From assembly GCA_019750465.1 (NCBI GenBank), contig JAIEOP010000256.1:1-38270 (forward strand): 38,270 bases of DNA, written 5' to 3'. A program made the position numbers and the translations under genes. This document shows, in pieces, positions 5,179 through 28,364 of the stretch. Positions within the stretch are counted from its first letter, which is position 1; the number at the start of each line of letters is the position of its first letter. Source of the stretch: Acetobacteraceae bacterium (GTDB lineage Bacteria; Pseudomonadota; Alphaproteobacteria; Acetobacterales; Acetobacteraceae). The notes beneath the pieces are model-generated. The model searched no databases. It saw nothing but the letters and a program-made list of their open reading frames with translations, and was not told the origin of the DNA.

Positions 5179-5778
5179 ATGTCGGCCAGCCTGAAGATCC
5201 CCAGCCCGAGCGTCCCCGGGACCATGACGGTGCCGGAATTCCTGGAATGGTGCCCGGATGACGGGCAGCGCTGGGAACTGGTCGATGGCACGCCGCGCGC
5301 CATGGCGCCGGCGAAGATCCGGTACGGGGCCCTGCAGAGCGAGTTGGCGCGCCTGCTCGGCAACCACCTGGCGGAGCGGGACAGCCCCTGTCGGGTCATC
5401 ATCGCGCCCGGCGTCATCCCGCGGGTGCAGGCAGCGTCCAATGTCCGCGTCCCCGACCTCGCGGTGACCTGCACGCCCTTCGATGCCACGGACGGGCACC
5501 TGACCGACCCGGTGCTGATCGTCGAGATCCTCTCGCCGAGCAACCATGCCGACACCTGGGCCAATGTCTGGGCCTATGCCAGCATTCCCAGCGTGCGGGA
5601 GATCCTGGTGCTGCGCACCGTGACGATGCGCGCCGACCTGCTGCGCCGCAATGCCGACGGCACCTGGCCGGAAGGGCCGGAGCTGATCACCGAGGGAGCG
5701 CTTACCCTGGCCAGCATCGGCTTCGCCGCCCCGCTGGCCGCGTTCTACCGCACTGCGGAAATGCCGCCACCGGCGTAG
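5179..5778 (+). CDS. Uma2 family (DUF820) restriction-endonuclease-fold protein
   Basis: The 199-residue product has the Uma2 layout: ELVDG (34-38), VPDLAV (91-96) and PVLIVEILSPSN (111-122), then an IPSVREILVL strand (137-146). These give the Glu, Asp and Glu of the PD-(D/E)xK nuclease core. In many family members a Lys follows in a D-x3-K-x3-Y helix; here the matching residues are D125, N129 and Y133, so the Lys is Asn. That may mark a subgroup or reduced activity. The biological role of the family is poorly known. It follows the ferredoxin reductase by 21 bases and converges on the 127-aa gene. Confidence 0.85.
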   Translation: MSASLKIPSPSVPGTMTVPEFLEWCPDDGQRWELVDGTPRAMAPAKIRYGALQSELARLLGNHLAERDSPCRVIIAPGVIPRVQAASNVRVPDLAVTCTPFDATDGHLTDPVLIVEILSPSNHADTWANVWAYASIPSVREILVLRTVTMRADLLRRNADGTWPEGPELITEGALTLASIGFAAPLAAFYRTAEMPPPA

Positions 5779-7999: not shown

Positions 8000-9436
8000 C
8001 TACTCGCTGCCGGTCTGCAATGGCCGGTGCGCGGCGGCGCAGGCACGGAAGCTGGCGTCGAGCGCCTGGCCCATCAGCCGGATCGCCGCGAGGCGGCGCG
8101 CGACGGACTGCACATGCGCCACCTCCTCCGCCGTCAGCGCCCGATCCAGGATCGAACGGTCGCGGTAGGAGAGCCACTTCTTGATCACCTGATAGCCGCC
8201 GATATGTGTCTCCCACACCGCCTCGGGGATGTTGCGCCAATGGCTTGCGTCGTTCATCGCCACGTCCAGCGTGCGGGCGCCGAGCAGGCTGGCCTGCGCG
8301 GCTGTCGCGGCCTCCTCCGGGGCATAGTCGCGCAGGGTGGTGGCGCCGCGGCCGGGCATGGTGACGCCCCGATCCGTGCGATGGCCCCAACCGACGAGGT
8401 GCCAGTCGCGCGCGGCGCCGGCGCGCGTGGCGGGTACAGCGATGGACGCGAGGTCGGGGGCGATGTCGCCCTCGGTGACGCCGGGCACCGGCGTGTCGGC
8501 GTCGAGCAGCACACCGAGGCGCGCGCCGAGCGAGGCGGAGGCGCGCAACAGGTCCGCCCTGTCCGGCAGCGGGATGCGCGGCCAGCCCTGGCGGATACCG
8601 GCGGCGTTCTCGGCGAGATAGGCGGGGCTGTAGGTGACGGCGAGGGCGTGGTGCCAGACGAAGCGCGAAGTGTCCGCGTCGGGCGGCAGGCCGAGCGCGG
8701 CGGTCCAGGCGAGGGCGGCGGGAGAGAGGTTTGGCCGGGGCGGCGCATCGGAGGCAGGTGCCAAGGCACCGGCCGCGACGGGATACAGCGCGTTGGGGAA
8801 GGGATGGCTGTTCGGGTCCAGAATGTAATCGCCTGGAAGCGCGCGGGTGACGATAACCGGAAGGCCGAACTCGGCGCGGCGAAAGCCGTTCCGAGCAGCA
8901 AGGAACGCCGCGCCGGCGGCTTGTTGAGCGGCAATGTCAGGCCGCGATCGGTTCCACAAGGGTTGGATGTCGCTATGGAAGCACCAGCGCACGTCGAAGG
9001 GCAGAACCGCGAGCCGACGAATGTTGCCAGTCTGTGTTCCTCCTGCCGCAAGAAATTTCCCGCGAACCTTGGCGGCATCAAAACCAGCAGCGCTCTCGAT
9101 CGGACCGTCACGTCCGGGTACTAGCGCCGCGAACGGAATCTTCGGGTCCGTGTAGCGCCGCATCCGCGCTTCCAACTCGGAGCGGTCATGTGCCAGCAGC
9201 GCACCCTTCCGCTTTTCAAGCAGTCCGCTCCAGTCCGATGTGAGCGAAAGGTCCGGCAAGGTTGCCCAAGAGATGTAATCGGCTTGACGCGTACCGGGCC
9301 GGAACGCGCGTTTGCCGGCTTCGGAGAGAGGAAGCGCCTCATAGGGACGGGCGACGGTCTCCTGGTTCAGCGAATCCAGCAATTCTTCCCGCTTCCGCTC
9401 CCCCCAGAACTCCCGGTACCAGACCTTCGCCGCCAT
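8000..9436 (-). CDS. Type ISP/IIG-like restriction-modification enzyme, C-terminal (target recognition) part
   Basis: The 478 residues resemble the C-terminal end of type ISP methyltransferase-nuclease proteins: VWYREFWGERKREELL at the start continues the methyltransferase fold, and the remainder matches the specificity region (blocks such as FDVRWCFHSDIQPLWNRSRPD, read in two parts, and GGYQVIKKWLSYRDR near the end). It begins only 4 bases after the stop of the preceding part, in a different frame, and its ATG has no separate ribosome site of note. Removing one base in the C run at 9449-9452 would fuse both parts into one ~1,125-residue protein. Parts of it (about 8.8-9.4 kb) are less GC-rich than the rest of the window, as expected for exchanged recognition domains. 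Confidence 0.82.
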   Translation of the reverse strand: MAAKVWYREFWGERKREELLDSLNQETVARPYEALPLSEAGKRAFRPGTRQADYISWATLPDLSLTSDWSGLLEKRKGALLAHDRSELEARMRRYTDPKIPFAALVPGRDGPIESAAGFDAAKVRGKFLAAGGTQTGNIRRLAVLPFDVRWCFHSDIQPLWNRSRPDIAAQQAAGAAFLAARNGFRRAEFGLPVIVTRALPGDYILDPNSHPFPNALYPVAAGALAPASDAPPRPNLSPAALAWTAALGLPPDADTSRFVWHHALAVTYSPAYLAENAAGIRQGWPRIPLPDRADLLRASASLGARLGVLLDADTPVPGVTEGDIAPDLASIAVPATRAGAARDWHLVGWGHRTDRGVTMPGRGATTLRDYAPEEAATAAQASLLGARTLDVAMNDASHWRNIPEAVWETHIGGYQVIKKWLSYRDRSILDRALTAEEVAHVQSVARRLAAIRLMGQALDASFRACAAAHRPLQTGSE

Positions 9437-9440
9437 CCCG

Positions 9441-11378
9441 CTATGCCGCCCCGCGCTTCACCAGCGTCGCGATCGCGGTCCCCACCCGGATGCCCTCCCG
9501 GTTGTACTCTGTCGAGAACACCGACGGGTCGGGCCGTCCTTCCGGCGTCAGCTTCCCCGTCTCGCGGCTGTCGCCGTTCAGGTTGTCGATCCAGATTGCG
9601 TCGAACTCCGCCAGCATGCGCTGCCGCATCACCACGTAGGAGGCGCCGGTGAGCCAGGAGAAGTTGCTGATGAAGCAGATCACCCCGCGCCCCGTCACCT
9701 CCGCGATGCGCCGCTCCGCGATGCGGAAGAAGCGCACATAGAGGTCGTCCAGGTTGAACTTCCGCACGCCCCACTTGGTGTTCAGCCCCTTCTTGTAGGG
9801 CTCCACCAGCCCGCCTTCGCTCTCGGGGCTGGTGCCCGCGTAGGCGTTGTACGGCGGGTTGCCAAGCACGACGAGGATCGGCCGCCGCTGCTTCACCGTC
9901 CGCGCCTCGGCGCGCTCGGCTTCCAGCGCGGCATAGGCGCCCTCCAGGCTGCCCATCTTCTCGTCGGCATCCCAGCCGGTCAGCGCGTTGGTCAGATAGA
10001 CCGCGGCGCGCTCGCCGTCGCGCAGATGCGCCTGCACGCCGCGCAGCGCCTCCCCCACCTGCCAGTGCGCGATGACGAAGGGCGCGGGCATGATCTCGAA
10101 GCCCACCACCCGCGTCGTCGCGGCGCGGCGCATCGCCTCGGCCAGCAGGTCGCCCATGCCGCGCGCGGCCAGCGTGCGGCGGATGCGGTCCAGCACCGCC
10201 ACCAGGTAGCTGCCCGTGCCGCAGCAGGGATCGAGCACCCAGACGCTCTCGTCCGCCAGCCCGTCCGCCACGCCCAGTTCCTCGCGCAGCACGCGGTCCA
10301 CGCGCTCGACCATGTACTCGACGATCTCGGGCGGCGTGTACCAGACGCCCAGCTGCTTGCGCAGGTCTGGGTCGAAGAAGGCGAGGAAGGGCTCGTAGAA
10401 GTGCCGCACCGCGGAGGCGTCCTCGAAGGCGCGGAAGAAGGCGGCGCGGTCCACCCGCGCCAGGGCTGCCTGCGCGGCATCCAGCAGCGGCGCCAGTCCC
10501 AGCGGCTGCAACGCCTGCGGCGAGGCGACCTGCTGGAACAACAACTGCATCACCGGCACGTGCAGCGACCAGTCGGCCTGGCGCCAGGAAAACGCCTCGC
10601 CCGGCCGCTCCTGCGCATGCGCGACCCAGGCGGAGAACAACCCGTAGAACAGCGTCTGCACCAGGGTGGAGCGGAACAGGCGCTCGCCCTCGCGCTGGTC
10701 GAAGGCGAGGCCGAGGCCACGTTCCAGGTTCTCGCGCAGGCTGCGCAGCGCCGGCAGCGAGGCGTGCTCGGCCAGAGAAGCAAGCGCATCGCGGGCATAC
10801 GAGGCAAGGAAGAACGCCACATCCTCCGGCCGCGCCAGCGGCGCGCGGGTCAGCATGCAGCGTTGCAGGAAATCGTTGAATCGGGTGCGCAGCGTGTCCG
10901 AGCGGCTTCCGTGCAGCAGGGCGTGGAAGCCGGGCTCGTCGGGAGCGAGGTCGAAGCTTTCGAGCACTCCGCCGCCGCCGGCGGCGAGAAGACGGAACTG
11001 CCGCAGGTTCGTCGCCAGCACGAGACCATAGGAGTCGCGGTATCGCGCCACCTGCTCCGAAGCGAGGAGTGCGGCCATGGATTCGGCGACGCCCTTGACC
11101 TCCACCACCCCGCGGTCGGCGGGCACGCCCGCATCCCAGCGCGGCGGCGGCGCACGGCGCGTGGTGGGCGCCTCGAACAGGCCGAAATCGGGAATCCCCG
11201 CCTGCTTGCGGCCGGTGACGTGATGCAGCGCGAAGACCTTCGGCTTGAGCCCGGCGCCGACCGCGTTCAACGCGGTGTTGAGCGCTGGATAGTAGGAGGT
11301 TTCGGCCGTGCCGCTGCGCGTGGCCCGCACCTGCGCGCAGCCGTCGAGGAATAAGTCGAGCGCGGATCTGGCTGCCAC
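9441..11378 (-). CDS. Type ISP/IIG-like restriction-modification enzyme, nuclease and N6-adenine methyltransferase part
   Basis: Single-chain restriction-modification enzyme that would methylate adenine and cut DNA. Residues ~60-96 carry GIPDFGLF and GVVEVKG, a PD-(D/E)xK nuclease core (D64, E93, K95). A helical linker leads to the methyltransferase: motif X region VWYTPPEIVEYM (~345-356), SAM motif I DPCCGTGSY (383-391) and catalytic motif IV NPPY (507-510). No helicase or translocase motifs are present, unlike classical type ISP. The frame ends with TAG right after VGTAIATLVKRGAA, in the middle of the methyltransferase fold, so as written this product lacks its recognition domain. The start is GTG at 11378 with no strong ribosome site. 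See the separate finding on the split. Confidence 0.88.
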   Translation of the reverse strand: MAARSALDLFLDGCAQVRATRSGTAETSYYPALNTALNAVGAGLKPKVFALHHVTGRKQAGIPDFGLFEAPTTRRAPPPRWDAGVPADRGVVEVKGVAESMAALLASEQVARYRDSYGLVLATNLRQFRLLAAGGGGVLESFDLAPDEPGFHALLHGSRSDTLRTRFNDFLQRCMLTRAPLARPEDVAFFLASYARDALASLAEHASLPALRSLRENLERGLGLAFDQREGERLFRSTLVQTLFYGLFSAWVAHAQERPGEAFSWRQADWSLHVPVMQLLFQQVASPQALQPLGLAPLLDAAQAALARVDRAAFFRAFEDASAVRHFYEPFLAFFDPDLRKQLGVWYTPPEIVEYMVERVDRVLREELGVADGLADESVWVLDPCCGTGSYLVAVLDRIRRTLAARGMGDLLAEAMRRAATTRVVGFEIMPAPFVIAHWQVGEALRGVQAHLRDGERAAVYLTNALTGWDADEKMGSLEGAYAALEAERAEARTVKQRRPILVVLGNPPYNAYAGTSPESEGGLVEPYKKGLNTKWGVRKFNLDDLYVRFFRIAERRIAEVTGRGVICFISNFSWLTGASYVVMRQRMLAEFDAIWIDNLNGDSRETGKLTPEGRPDPSVFSTEYNREGIRVGTAIATLVKRGAA

Positions 11379-11543: not shown

Positions 11544-12143
11544 ATGCCCTCCCCCCTCCGCCCCCGCCGCTCCCGCTACTCCCCGCCCCGCCCCTGGGCG
11601 CCCATGACCGACGCCGAGTGGGACGCCCTCGCCCCCTTCCTGCGCCCCGCCGGCAGCCGCGGCCGCCCCATCGAGGGCGGCGCCCGCGCCCGGCTCGACG
11701 CCGTCTTCCGCATCGTCTCGGGCAAGCTCCCCTGGGGCGCCGAGGCCGACACCCTCTCCCGCCAGTTCCGCCGCTGGGCCGCGTCCGGCCTCTTCGCCCG
11801 CCTGCTGAAGACCGTGGCCAGGTCCCGCCGCGCCCGCTCCGTGCCCGAGGCGCTGCGCGGCCTGGAGCACTGGATCTGCGCCGCCCACCGCCGCTCGGTC
11901 CGGGTCTGCGGCGTCGGCGCCATCGCGCTGGCGCGGCGGCTGGGAATGCTCTCGGCGCTGCCAGGACCGCCCTGGATGCTGCCGGACCCGGTTTTGTCCG
12001 AAAGGCTCGGCAGGATCATGCGCGACTGGGCGCAAACCCTGCCGCGGCAACGGCCCGCGCCGCTCGATCTCGCCCTGGCGCGGCGCCTGCTGCGCACCTT
12101 TGGCGGGGCCAGGCGCATCCATCCAGGGCTGGTGCCGGCGTGA
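11544..12143 (+). CDS. Free-standing transposase N-terminal (DUF4096) domain protein
   Basis: The 199-residue product has the DNA-binding N-terminal domain of IS5-type transposases: MTDAEWDALAPFL (21-33), RGRP (~39-42), a shortened loop, then LSRQFRRWAASGLFARLL (~73-90). The catalytic DDE domain is absent. Instead ~105 residues follow that I cannot assign (LEHWICAAHRRSVRV, then a basic tail). No terminal inverted repeats or target duplications flank it, and the frame is intact, so it looks co-opted rather than mobile. The ATG at 11544 has a weak ribosome site; an internal ATG at 11604 is an alternative. Its TGA overlaps a GTG at 12140 that is in frame with nth. It may be a DNA-binding regulator. 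Confidence 0.72.
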   Translation: MPSPLRPRRSRYSPPRPWAPMTDAEWDALAPFLRPAGSRGRPIEGGARARLDAVFRIVSGKLPWGAEADTLSRQFRRWAASGLFARLLKTVARSRRARSVPEALRGLEHWICAAHRRSVRVCGVGAIALARRLGMLSALPGPPWMLPDPVLSERLGRIMRDWAQTLPRQRPAPLDLALARRLLRTFGGARRIHPGLVPA

Positions 12144-20200: not shown

Positions 20201-20232
20201 TCCTTCCAGTCTGACGCGTCCCGGCTGACCGG

Positions 20233-20269
20233 CGGGCGGGGCGGACCAGCGCCCCGCCCGTCCACTTTT
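20233..20269 (+). terminator. Rho-independent terminator after the DUF4142 gene
   Basis: A perfect 11-bp GC stem (left arm CGGGCGGGGCG at 20233-20243, six-base loop, right arm 20250-20260) followed by TCCACTTTT. It lies 33 bases after the stop codon. Confidence 0.75.
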
Positions 20270-20322
20270 CCCTGCGCCGCATCCGCGCCAAGGTCGCGGC
20301 ATGCGCCCGCGAGCCCCCATTC

Positions 20323-21591
20323 TTGTCCGCCACTGATCCGGCCCGTGGCGGCCGGCTCGCCGGCCCGGCCGGCGTGGCGGCGCTGCTCGGCGTGGCGCAG
20401 ACCCTGGCCTGGGGCACCACCTTCTACCTGCCGGCCGTCCTGATCCCGTCCATGAGCGAGGAGCTGGGCGGCGACCGCACCCTCATCTACGGCGCCTTCT
20501 CCCTGGCACTGCTGATCGCGGGCCTCGCCGCCCCGCGCACCGGCCGCGCCATCGAGCGCCGCAGCGGCCGGCCGGTGCTGGTGCTCTCCTCCTGCGTGCT
20601 GGCGGCGGGGCTGGTGCTGCTCGGCGTGCTGCCCGGGCTCCCGGGCTGGTTCCTGGGCTGGATCGTGATCGGCTACGGCATGGCGCTCGGGCTGTACGAG
20701 GCGGCCTTCGCCACGCTGGGCATGCTGTTCGGACGGGCGGCGCGGCGGCCGATCACCTTCGTCACGCTCTATGCCGGCTTCGCCAGCACGATCGGCTGGC
20801 CGATGACGGCGCTGCTGCTGCCGCTGGCCGGCTGGCGCGGCACCTGCCTCGTCTATGCCGGGGTGAACCTGCTGGTCGTGCTGCCGCTCTATCTGCTGCT
20901 GCCGCGGGAGCCGGCCGGGGCGGCGGGCGTGCCCGCCACGCAGGCGGCGGCCCCGCTGCCGAAGGAGGCACCGCCGCCGGCTGCCTGGGCACGGCGGACG
21001 CTGCTGCTGCTGACCGCGTTCTTCACCATCCGCGCCTTCATCTCGGCGACCTTCGCGGTGCATGTGGTGGCGCTGTTCGGCGGGCTCGGCCTCGGCGTCG
21101 CGGCCGCCGTCTCGGTGGCGGCGCTGCAGGGGCCGTCGCAGGTGGCCGGGCGGGTGCTGGAATTCGGCATCGGCACGCGGGCGCATCCGCTGACGGTGGC
21201 GCGCTGGGGGGCGGCGCTGCTGCCGCTCGGCATCGGCGCGCTGCTGGCGTTCGGCACCCCCGCGGCGGCGGCCTTCATGATCGGCTACGGCGCCTCCAAC
21301 GGCATCATGACGATCAGCCGCGGCGCCGTGCCGCTGGTGCTGTTCGGGCCGCGCGGCTACCCGACGCTGATGGGCCGGATGGCGCTGCCCATCCTGCTCT
21401 CCCAGGCGATGGCGCCGATGGCCACGGCACCGCTGGTGGGCCTGCTCCCGGCCCCGACGATCTTCGCCGCCGGCGGCGCCATGGCGGTGGCGGCCATGGC
21501 CTGCCTGCTGGCGATCAGGCCCCCGCCCGCCACGGGCGGGCTCAGCCCGCCGCCAGCGGCTTCTGCCCCGTCTCCGCCCGGACCGCATTGA
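20323..21591 (+). CDS. MFS transporter
   Basis: Major facilitator superfamily protein of 422 residues with about twelve hydrophobic segments and a central cytoplasmic loop around 195-225 (PAGAAGVPATQAAAPLPKEA). The loop after segment 2 reads GRAIERRSGRPVL (~73-85), the usual MFS cytoplasmic signature. Family resemblance is to the short drug/organic-anion MFS members of alphaproteobacteria; the substrate is unknown. The start is uncertain: the TTG at 20323 has no good ribosome site, and a GTG near 20371 is possible but would trim the first segment. The last 50 bases overlap the end of the convergent epimerase gene; the C-terminal tail there is Pro/Ser-rich. Confidence 0.85.
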   Translation: MSATDPARGGRLAGPAGVAALLGVAQTLAWGTTFYLPAVLIPSMSEELGGDRTLIYGAFSLALLIAGLAAPRTGRAIERRSGRPVLVLSSCVLAAGLVLLGVLPGLPGWFLGWIVIGYGMALGLYEAAFATLGMLFGRAARRPITFVTLYAGFASTIGWPMTALLLPLAGWRGTCLVYAGVNLLVVLPLYLLLPREPAGAAGVPATQAAAPLPKEAPPPAAWARRTLLLLTAFFTIRAFISATFAVHVVALFGGLGLGVAAAVSVAALQGPSQVAGRVLEFGIGTRAHPLTVARWGAALLPLGIGALLAFGTPAAAAFMIGYGASNGIMTISRGAVPLVLFGPRGYPTLMGRMALPILLSQAMAPMATAPLVGLLPAPTIFAAGGAMAVAAMACLLAIRPPPATGGLSPPPAASAPSPPGPH

Positions 21592-26531: not shown

Positions 26532-28319
26532 TCAGAGCGGCCCCAGCCGGCCGAGCTCCATCGCCTTGATCTGCAGTGCCAGGTACTTCGAGTTGATCCG
26601 GCACTGCGCCAGGCCGCCGGCGATGAACCATACCCCCTGCTGCGGCGTGCGCTTGAACATGTTGTTCAGCTCGCCGTCCGGACCGATGCCCCAGACCGGC
26701 CCGATGCGCTCCGCCATCGCCTCGCCCAGCGCGCGGCGCACGAGTTCCTGCTGGGGATAGTAGCCGGTGGCCAGCACGATGAGGTCGGCGGGCACCGTCG
26801 AGCCGTCCTTCAGCAGCGCGCCGTCGGCGCAGAAGCGCTCGATGCGGTCGAATTGCAGCAGGCCGAGCTCGCCATTCGCGAGCAGCGCCGAGCTTCCGGC
26901 GTCGAGGTTGTAGCCGCCGCCACGGCGGAAATACTTCATCTGGTGGCCGGTCTCGTCCTCGCCGATATCGTGCTTGAAGCCGACGCGCTTCAGTCCCTCG
27001 ATCAGCTCCCTGTCGAGCTGGAGCATGCGCTGCACGACGGCCTTGTAGCCCTTGATGATCAGCGGCGGCGGCGCCGAGGCGACGATCAGGTCGCGGTCCT
27101 CGAGCGGCCCGCCCTCGTCGAAGATCGCCTCGTTCAGCCGCGCGCTCGGGTTGATCGAGACGACGGTGGTGGAGCCGCGCTGGATCAGCGTGGTGTGCAC
27201 GCCATGGCTGTGCAGGTCGAGCGCGATGTCGTTGGCGCTGCTGCCGGTGCCGAGGATGAGCGCCCGCTTGCCCTCCCAGCCCGCGCCGCTGTCGAAGCCC
27301 TCGGAGTGGATGACCTCGCCCCCGAACTCATCGAGGCCGGGCAGGTCGGGCATCATGGGGTAGGAGCTGACGCCATTGGCGAAGACGAGGTGCCGGGGCC
27401 GGACGATGCGCTCGGTGCCGTCGCCCCGCCGCAGCCGCGCGGTCCAGCGCTTCGTCGCCTCGTCCCAAGTGCCCTCGACGAATTCCGTATCCGTCCAGCA
27501 GTTGATCTCCATGGCGTCGGCATAGAATTCGAACCAGTTCCCCAGCATGTCCTTCGGGATGTAGGTCGGCCAGGTCGGCGGGAATTCCATGTAGGGCAGG
27601 TGGTTGATGTGGACCGAGTTGTGCAGCGCGAGGGAATGGTAGCGCCGGCGCCAGCTGTCGCCGATGCGCGGCCATTTCTCGACGACGAGGGTATCGACGC
27701 CGAGCTGGTTGAGCCGCGCCGCCGCCGAGAGCCCCGCCTGGGCCGCGCCGATCACCAGCACCGCCGGCTCGCGGTCCTCGTAGGCCTGGGCCCTGCGGCG
27801 CATGTCGGCCCAGTTGTCGCCGCCGAAATTCCGCGAGTAGGCGGCGCCGGTCGGCCGGTTGGCGCCGATCCGCTCCTCATGGCCGTGCAGCGACTGCAGC
27901 GTCGTCGAGATCAGCCACGCCTTCATCGCGCCGCCATCCTCGGCCGCGAGGCGAATGATGCCGGCGCCGCGGCCCTCGGCTGTCGTGAACTCGAAGATCG
28001 CCTCGATGCTGTCGATGCCGAGGCGCTTCACCCGGCGCGGCGGCTTGCGATCCGGCGGCAGGTGGAACCCCCGCGCCAGCGTGCGCGCCTGGTCCGCGGC
28101 CAGACGGTCGGCGATGGCGTCACGGCCGGCGACCGGCGTCATGTGCCAGGTGAAGGCCAGGACGTCCCGCCAGTGCGAGTCGGCGTGGAACAGGGCCGCG
28201 ATGCCTGCGACATCCCGGGCCGCGAGCGCCGCCTCGAAGGCGCCGAGCCAGTCCGCGGCGGAACGCCGGGCGTGCTCCGCCCGCTGGAACTCACTCCAGG
28301 ATTGATCGGATCCGTCCAC
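26532..28319 (-). CDS. Flavin-containing monooxygenase with N-terminal SnoaL-like domain
   Basis: NADPH- and FAD-dependent oxygenase, 595 residues. The GTG at 28319 is chosen because GGAGG lies five bases upstream; a GTG at 28331 has no ribosome site. Residues ~20-145 resemble a SnoaL/NTF2-like pocket (FEAALAARDVAGIAALFHAD). The FAD motif is GAAQAG (191-196); the second nucleotide motif is LGTGSSANDIAL (~345-356). The FMO/Baeyer-Villiger fingerprint is only loosely kept (FGGEVIHS region), so the enzyme class within FMO-like proteins is uncertain. Its own promoter with a palindrome lies at 28365-28394. It precedes Bug protein 1 in an operon. Confidence 0.9.
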   Translation of the reverse strand: MDGSDQSWSEFQRAEHARRSAADWLGAFEAALAARDVAGIAALFHADSHWRDVLAFTWHMTPVAGRDAIADRLAADQARTLARGFHLPPDRKPPRRVKRLGIDSIEAIFEFTTAEGRGAGIIRLAAEDGGAMKAWLISTTLQSLHGHEERIGANRPTGAAYSRNFGGDNWADMRRRAQAYEDREPAVLVIGAAQAGLSAAARLNQLGVDTLVVEKWPRIGDSWRRRYHSLALHNSVHINHLPYMEFPPTWPTYIPKDMLGNWFEFYADAMEINCWTDTEFVEGTWDEATKRWTARLRRGDGTERIVRPRHLVFANGVSSYPMMPDLPGLDEFGGEVIHSEGFDSGAGWEGKRALILGTGSSANDIALDLHSHGVHTTLIQRGSTTVVSINPSARLNEAIFDEGGPLEDRDLIVASAPPPLIIKGYKAVVQRMLQLDRELIEGLKRVGFKHDIGEDETGHQMKYFRRGGGYNLDAGSSALLANGELGLLQFDRIERFCADGALLKDGSTVPADLIVLATGYYPQQELVRRALGEAMAERIGPVWGIGPDGELNNMFKRTPQQGVWFIAGGLAQCRINSKYLALQIKAMELGRLGPL

Positions 28320-28364
28320 CGCTGCCTCCACGAGGCGCTGCGGCCGAAGCCCGCCTCACGCGGC

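What the first reader, a model, noticed from the sequence alone, without database searches (positions are those of the whole stretch)
8000..11378. A nuclease-methyltransferase restriction enzyme split into two frames by one base
Two abutting reverse-strand frames (645 and 478 codons, four bases apart) together carry a PD-(D/E)xK nuclease, N6-adenine methyltransferase motifs and a recognition region. Removing one base in the C run at 9449-9452 joins them into one ~1,125-residue frame with plausible sequence at the junction. The split falls inside the methyltransferase fold. It may be a sequencing error, an inactivated enzyme, or a length-variable switch that turns recognition on and off. It lacks the helicase of classical type ISP enzymes, so it resembles a helicase-free or type IIG-like form.
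Basis: partly seen in the sequence, partly recalled or inferred. Interest (0 to 1): 0.6.

Follow-up and report, generated by a model that had tools for sequence, protein, structure and literature searches.

The report
Frameshift-split single-chain restriction enzyme gene
A bacterial gene for an all-in-one DNA cutting and marking enzyme, which nearly all its relatives keep as one piece, is split in two here by a small frame error in a loop of the marking domain; most likely it is a recently switched-off copy of a known kind of enzyme.

Summary
ORF A (9441-11378, 645 aa) and ORF B (8000-9436, 478 aa) are the two halves of one helicase-free, Type IIG/IIL-like restriction-methylation enzyme: PD-(D/E)xK nuclease, N6-adenine methyltransferase, and Type_ISP_C specificity domain. 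Together they tile the family alignment with little missing. The frame change must lie in the 17 bases (9441-9457) where both frames are open. In 32 of 34 relatives this joint is read in one frame; one (G311) is split there too but is damaged again nearby, and one has a stop soon after. A length-variable switch is not supported: the run is four bases. The rest of the gene shows no decay, so the lesion is recent, or both parts still work, or it is an error. Best reading: a recent, genuine loss-of-function frameshift (0.50). The neat stop-start spacing (0.4% of simulated shifts of this kind) keeps a coupled two-chain enzyme open (0.26); a sequence error is also open (0.17). Similar frameshift-split systems are published for Helicobacter and Campylobacter.

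The parts
9441..11378 (-). ORF A: PD-(D/E)xK nuclease, helical region, and all but the last strand of the N6-adenine methyltransferase (645 aa, GTG start)
   Evidence: the GTG start lines up with the ATG of relative L029
8000..9436 (-). ORF B: last methyltransferase strand plus specificity (target recognition) domain (478 aa, ATG start)
9441..9457 (-). Joint: the only 17 bases where both frames are open, so the place of a single frame change
9449..9452 (-).
9434..9443 (-). stop TAG of A, four bases, then ATG of B; spacing that could allow coupled re-initiation
11187..11192 (-). nuclease motif P63-D64
11094..11102 (-). nuclease motif E93-V94-K95
10212..10232 (-). methyltransferase SAM-binding motif DPCCGTG (motif role recalled)
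9849..9860 (-). methyltransferase catalytic motif NPPY (motif role recalled)
8135..9046 (-). PF18135 Type_ISP_C match
8860..9340 (-). low-GC3 stretch of the target recognition part (GC3 0.62-0.74 over alignment columns 800-1000; approximate borders)

Best explanation
This is a chromosomal gene descended from helicase-free, single-chain Type IIG/IIL-like restriction-modification enzymes. It recently took a net gain of one base (or loss of two) in the loop before the last strand of its methyltransferase domain. Translation of the main product ends at 9441, giving a nuclease-methyltransferase fragment without its last strand and without target recognition; B holds the missing strand and the recognition domain. 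Without recognition, cutting and methylation are lost together, so one small indel can switch such an enzyme off without the self-killing expected when a separate methylase is lost. I think the enzyme is off in this genome. Shown: the split, its place, the fused state of the relatives, the domains. Inferred: that the indel is real, that it is recent, and that it abolishes activity.
For: 32 of 34 relatives read the joint in one frame. The halves tile the family alignment with only the linker out of register. The joint is about model residues 644-652 of a fused relative, between strands 636-643 and 653-658, inside the part that aligns to M.TaqI's catalytic domain (343/344-697). The family loses genes often: 8 of the 34 loci carry frameshifts, stops or deletions (L021, L022, L023, L031, L040, L042, L047, L052), and short C-terminal matches that look like remnants occur in further genomes. 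No intact stand-alone B-type gene was seen among 397 family genomes (at most four candidates per genome were scored, E <= 1e-8). The lesion is single: conserved positions deviate in 4 of 205 (A) and 4 of 76 (B) columns, within the range of the relatives. Published parallels: the H. pylori Type ISP loci HP0667-HP0669 and JHP0612-JHP0613 are split by frameshifts, in the former not at repeats (PMC3936762, section 28); for cj0031 the authors predict that both activities are lost together (PMC4889913, passages).
Against: No reads were available, so an assembly error is not excluded. The tidy arrangement (overlap of 20 nt or less and an ATG beside the stop) is reached by only 0.41% of simulated shifts of the window's kind, 1.9% with any start codon, a hint that the split could be kept. 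Lack of further decay is equally expected if both parts still work. G311 has an independent split at the same joint.
Confidence: 0.5

Rival explanations
1. Working two-chain enzyme: A stops at 9441, the ribosome re-initiates at the ATG four bases on, and B supplies the last methyltransferase strand and the recognition domain in trans.
For: Stop and start are four bases apart; with a short overlap and an ATG this arises in 0.41% of simulated shifts of this kind (1.9% with any start; 0.82% and 2.2% if only codons 620-680 are shifted). A and B keep conserved residues as relatives do. G311 has an independent split at the same joint with a GTGA overlap. Precedents: EcoKI M and S genes lie in different frames with coupled translation and work when fused (PMC3510504, abstract and sections 3 and 22); M.AquI and M.EcoHK31I are two-polypeptide methyltransferases (PMC3404938, passages); BcgI has an RM chain plus an S chain (PMC3874165, passages).
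Against: The cut is inside the methyltransferase sheet, about 45 residues before the catalytic domain ends. 32 of 34 relatives are single-frame there. G311's B part is itself interrupted at a contig end. Lesions in relatives do not cluster significantly at the joint: 1 of 11 within 15 residues, P=0.26. No strong ribosome-binding site is evident by eye before the ATG. The simulation's cut-offs were chosen after seeing the split.
Confidence: 0.26
2. Sequencing or assembly error: the genome really holds one frame.
For: The only lesion in 3.4 kb is one frame change in a GC-rich stretch with a G run; the assembly is in 522 contigs; nearly all relatives are fused.
Against: A four-base run is short for a consensus error of short reads (general knowledge; the platform is unknown). 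Of 10 other window frames checked, 8 match most of a Pfam profile in one frame and 2 (26535-28355, 20215-21588) match part of one.
Confidence: 0.17
3. Phase-variable switch: slippage in the C/G run turns the enzyme on and off, as in Campylobacter cj0031/cj0032.
For: A one-base change joins the frames at a homopolymer; cj0031 has a G9 tract whose changes split the gene in two (PMC4889913, passages).
Against: Four bases against nine. 32 of 34 relatives are single-frame at the joint. G311 has a five-base G run at its joint, also short.
Confidence: 0.03
4. Programmed ribosomal frameshift making both a short and a full-length protein.
For: Frames overlap with almost no lost sequence.
Against: No unusual RNA structure (z -0.83), no slippery site evident by eye, relatives do not share the arrangement.
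Confidence: 0.04

Closest known systems
DrdV (PDB 7lo5/7lvv; Type IIL/IIG label recalled)
   Same: Same order nuclease-methyltransferase-recognition, no helicase; best solved match by sequence (profile E=2.6e-54), nuclease match Z 14.3, aligned along nearly the whole chain (model 3-1107, Z 29.1 but rmsd 29 because the domains sit differently)
   Different: DrdV is one chain of 1,029 residues; about 20% identity; target sequence of the window enzyme unknown
Type ISP enzymes LlaGI and LlaBIII
   Same: Methyltransferase and recognition domain alike; Type_ISP_C in B; records annotate the fused plasmid relatives as 'type ISP restriction/modification enzyme'
   Different: No helicase-like ATPase found; relatives are about 1,100-1,200 aa, the LlaBIII chain 1,578. 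Type ISP is described as like Type IIL with a helicase-like domain inserted (PMC4872093, passages)
BcgI-like Type IIB systems (RM chain plus S chain)
   Same: Nuclease-methyltransferase in one chain and recognition in another
   Different: The cut here lies inside the methyltransferase; the relatives are single-frame; BcgI-type S subunits are described as tandemly repeated (PMC3874165, passages)
H. pylori Type ISP loci HP0667-HP0669 and JHP0612-JHP0613
   Same: Frameshift-split single-chain enzymes, in HP0667-0669 not at repeats (PMC3936762, section 28)
   Different: There HP0669, with methyltransferase and specificity together, was active by itself in E. coli; here the split separates them
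Campylobacter jejuni cj0031/cj0032 (phase-variable Type IIG)
   Same: One Type IIG gene that can appear as two frames (PMC4889913, passages)
   Different: G9 tract there, G4 here

Membership tests
Type IIG/IIL single-chain restriction-modification enzymes | N-terminal PD-(D/E)xK nuclease | tested here: met
   Predicted fold of the window N-terminus: DrdV Z 14.3, BpuSI Z 10.2; P63, D64, E93 and K95 present
Type IIG/IIL single-chain restriction-modification enzymes | N6-adenine methyltransferase followed by C-terminal recognition domain | tested here: met
   (over the two frames together)
Type IIG/IIL single-chain restriction-modification enzymes | all functions in one polypeptide | tested here: not met
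   Two frames in the window, so the window gene is filed as a disrupted descendant, not as a working member; 32 of 34 relatives are single-frame at the joint
Type IIG/IIL single-chain restriction-modification enzymes | cleavage at a fixed distance from the site; one-strand methylation (IIL) | not testable with these tools
   needs biochemistry or a methylome
Frameshift-split single-chain R-M genes (as in H. pylori and C. jejuni) | two adjacent frames that together match one intact chain of relatives | tested here: met
Frameshift-split single-chain R-M genes (as in H. pylori and C. jejuni) | frameshift confirmed in the genome | not testable with these tools
   no reads available
Type ISP | helicase-like ATPase between nuclease and methyltransferase | tested here: not met
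   No helicase family in A or B at E <= 0.001; matches to LlaGI and LlaBIII begin at chain residues 714-718 in structure and later by sequence
Type ISP | Type_ISP_C specificity domain | tested here: met
   PF18135 in B, E=9.6e-22
BcgI-like (Type IIB) | complete RM chain and separate S chain as the usual form | tested here: not met
   A lacks the last methyltransferase strand; relatives are single-frame
Phase-variable Type IIG (simple-sequence-repeat switch) | long homopolymer or repeat at the frame joint | tested here: not met
   G4 only
Phase-variable Type IIG (simple-sequence-repeat switch) | length variants in a population | not testable with these tools
   no reads available

The most novel reading that the evidence does not exclude
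The split is kept by selection: a Type IIL-like enzyme has become a two-chain enzyme by a frame change in the loop before the last methyltransferase strand, with B made by coupled re-initiation, completing the methyltransferase sheet in trans and acting as an exchangeable specificity chain. The independent split at the same joint in G311, and the separation of a fixed nuclease-methyltransferase block from a diverging specificity block just after this joint in G654, would be the same process at other stages.
Probability: 0.17. Interest if true: 0.6.

Novelty: new member of a known kind. Interest (0 to 1): 0.28.

Why it matters
If the split is a plain loss, it shows again how fused restriction enzymes can be lost without harm to the cell. 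If the two chains still work together, it would be a natural example of a step between single-chain and multi-chain enzymes in the scheme linking Type I, IIB and IIG systems, which has been explored by engineering EcoKI (PMC3510504, abstract and sections 3 and 22; PMC6158711, abstract and part of section 20).

Tried and rejected
Phase variation: rejected for a G4 run and single-frame relatives. Programmed frameshift: joint RNA not unusual. Natural two-gene form: not seen in 397 family genomes within the limits, nor in the 34 joint tests except the doubly damaged G311. Repeats that could explain a rearrangement at the joint: none among those listed (20 of 32 direct families, 25 of 78 inverted pairs shown). 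Exact joint sequence in viral contigs: 0 matches. Synteny with the same-genus genome G001: it had no match to the neighbouring HhH-GPD gene at E <= 1e-50, so the empty site was not examined. Selection by synonymous rates was not attempted because the nearest relatives are only about 65% identical in A. The coding scan is circular for A and B and was replaced.
Full report
What is there. ORF A (9441-11378, minus) and ORF B (8000-9436, minus) are as described. A ends with TAG at 9441-9443; B's ATG is at 9434-9436. B's frame is open back to 9457, so a single frame change must lie in 9441-9457, which holds the GGGG at 9449-9452. B is the +1 frame of A. With base frequencies from five other window genes, A scores 0.48 per codon in its own frame (best other 0.26) and B 0.27 (best other 0.16). 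The scan was trained on A and B themselves and is not independent for them. The GC-rich third position moves from frame A to frame B at the joint.

What it encodes. Pfam finds N6_Mtase and Eco57I in A and Type_ISP_C in B. PADLOC's best models for both are 'Type IIG restriction enzyme-methyltransferase' (E=2.6e-62 for A, 1.6e-8 for B). NCBIfam gives no model over its cut-off. The first 181 residues, folded from an alignment of 15 N-termini (pLDDT 89.9), match the nuclease parts of DrdV (Z 14.3, 135 residues, rmsd 2.8) and BpuSI (Z 10.2); the next chain has 7.8. P63, D64 and E93 are invariant in the 15; K95 is present in the window. Pfam shows no helicase. By sequence the solved relatives are DrdV, LlaGI and LlaBIII; B alone finds none at E <= 0.001.

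Relatives. With A as query, at E <= 1e-60: 16 of 397 family genomes and 7 of 385 class genomes, the window's own genome counted in both, at most three candidates per genome scored. Further: 9 loci in genome contigs and 6 plasmid records covered to at least 80%, five of them fetched. An order-level search of 318 genomes gave no new genome. Three genus searches of 13, 5 and 10 genomes added only matches of 33-38% identity. A scan of viral contigs with six peptide patterns of A, which reaches close relatives only, found none.

The joint. I tested 34 loci in which both sides of the joint are present. Several loci share a genome (three in G654, two in G205). In 32 of 34 the joint is read in one frame without a stop. 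L031 (G311) changes frame there and L047 (G473) has a stop soon after; the window scores as broken by the same test. The fused relatives are about 1,100-1,200 aa, and the linker between '...LV(K/R)R' and '...FWG' varies in length and sequence.

Breakage in the family. Eight of the 34 loci carry frameshifts, stops or deletions somewhere: L021, L022, L023, L031, L040, L042, L047, L052; L037 also looks damaged but is not counted. Short C-terminal matches that look like remnants appear in further genomes. Of 11 lesions that I placed by hand from match borders (L037 included, L023 not), one lies within 15 residues of the joint (P=0.26) and two within 30 (P=0.11), so the joint is not shown to be a preferred place. 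No intact stand-alone B-type gene was seen in 397 family genomes (at most four candidates per genome, E <= 1e-8). Across 398 genomes of the phylum PF18135 occurs in 39, most listed matches lying in frames above 900 aa; of nine short or stop-bearing cases that I opened, several are cut by contig ends and others are frame-broken or hold a stop.

Where the split falls. The model of the fused relative L029 (1,117 aa, pLDDT 76.5, pTM 0.72) has strands at 636-643 and 653-658. B begins at about model residue 650 and A ends in the loop before it (alignment; the aligner misplaced A's last residue). M.TaqI's catalytic domain aligns to model residues 343/344-697 (218-219 residues, rmsd 2.8-3.0), so B carries the last strand and about 45 residues of the methyltransferase. 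Whole-chain Z-scores come with large rmsd because domains sit differently; domain-level matches are the safer ones.

Is the split kept by selection? For: among simulated shifts of the window's kind in 12 intact relatives, 0.41% give an overlap of 20 nt or less with an ATG beside the stop, 1.9% with any start (0.82% and 2.2% for codons 620-680 alone); for the opposite kind, as in G311, the figures are 2.75% and 6.9%. Conserved columns deviate in 4 of 205 (A) and 4 of 76 (B); the relatives range from 0.5 to 7.8% and 0 to 14.1%. G311 shows a GTGA overlap at the same joint. Against: the place inside the fold, the fused relatives, G311's second interruption, no clear ribosome-binding site by eye. 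The cut-offs were chosen after seeing the split. In checking I found that I had first read the wrong column of this simulation (2.75% instead of 0.41%), and I raised the two-chain reading from 0.20 to 0.26 and its bold form from 0.13 to 0.17, lowering inactivation from 0.55 to 0.50 and error from 0.18 to 0.17.

Error or real? Of ten other window frames, eight match most of a Pfam profile in one frame and two match part of one. The second enzyme of this broad kind in the same genome is one frame of 1,172 aa (38% identical over residues 282-602).

Specificity exchange. In the window GC3 is 0.83-0.97 in A, 0.89 just after the joint, 0.62-0.74 over alignment columns 800-1000, and 0.85-0.95 after that. 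Several GC-rich relatives show such a dip (for example L029, L016, L002, L046), others little or none (L048, L017). In G654 two copies agree 100% (rounded) in 150-base blocks over the nuclease-methyltransferase part and fall to 61-93% just after the joint. This fits exchange of the recognition part. Whether an exchange caused the window's indel is not shown.

Known parallels. EcoKI's M and S genes are in different frames with coupled translation and work when fused (PMC3510504; abstract, sections 3 and 22). H. pylori Type ISP loci are split by frameshifts (PMC3936762; passages and sections 27-28). Campylobacter cj0031/cj0032 is split by a G9 tract (PMC4889913; passages). M.AquI and M.EcoHK31I are two-polypeptide methyltransferases (PMC3404938; passages). 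Type ISP is like Type IIL with an inserted helicase-like domain (PMC4872093; passages). None of the seven search listings shows, by title or abstract start, a split of a helicase-free enzyme of this family at this joint; beyond listings I saw only the sections and passages named.

Verdict. A frameshift-split descendant of a known enzyme kind; most likely a recent, real inactivation (0.50), with a working two-chain form (0.26) and a sequence error (0.17) as the serious rivals. 'New member of a known kind' refers to frameshift-split single-chain restriction-modification genes.

Noticed in passing
L002, L034, L035, L037, L038, L039: A subclade of the enzyme has E(V/I)DD where others have E(V/I/L/M)K in the nuclease motif (6 of 6), so the usual catalytic lysine is missing; these may be methylation-only or use another lysine.
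   Followed up: partly
L048, L051, L052 (one genome, G654): Three copies of the enzyme in one two-contig genome; two are identical over the nuclease-methyltransferase block and differ after the joint, the third is frameshifted.
   Followed up: partly
L073 (G906), oriented positions about 1450-1510: A related methyltransferase plus Type_ISP_C gene is split beside a run of eight A, well past the methyltransferase core; a better candidate for phase variation than the window.
   Followed up: no
window 11544-12143 (+): DUF4096 (putative IS4/5-family transposase) frame about 165 bases upstream of ORF A, facing away.
   Followed up: no
window 5179-5775 (+): Uma2-family protein (putative restriction endonuclease, PF05685).
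   Followed up: no
G000:C263 (L010, L053): Second enzyme of this broad kind in the same genome, single open frame of 1,172 aa with a strong Type_ISP_C match (E=8.6e-70).
   Followed up: partly
window 8860-9340 (-): Low-GC3 stretch over the recognition part, also seen in several relatives, which suggests exchanged recognition modules.
   Followed up: partly
L031 (G311), first ~133 bases of the contig: The B part of the other joint-split relative stops matching near the contig end and continues on another contig (C7), as if interrupted by an insertion.
   Followed up: no
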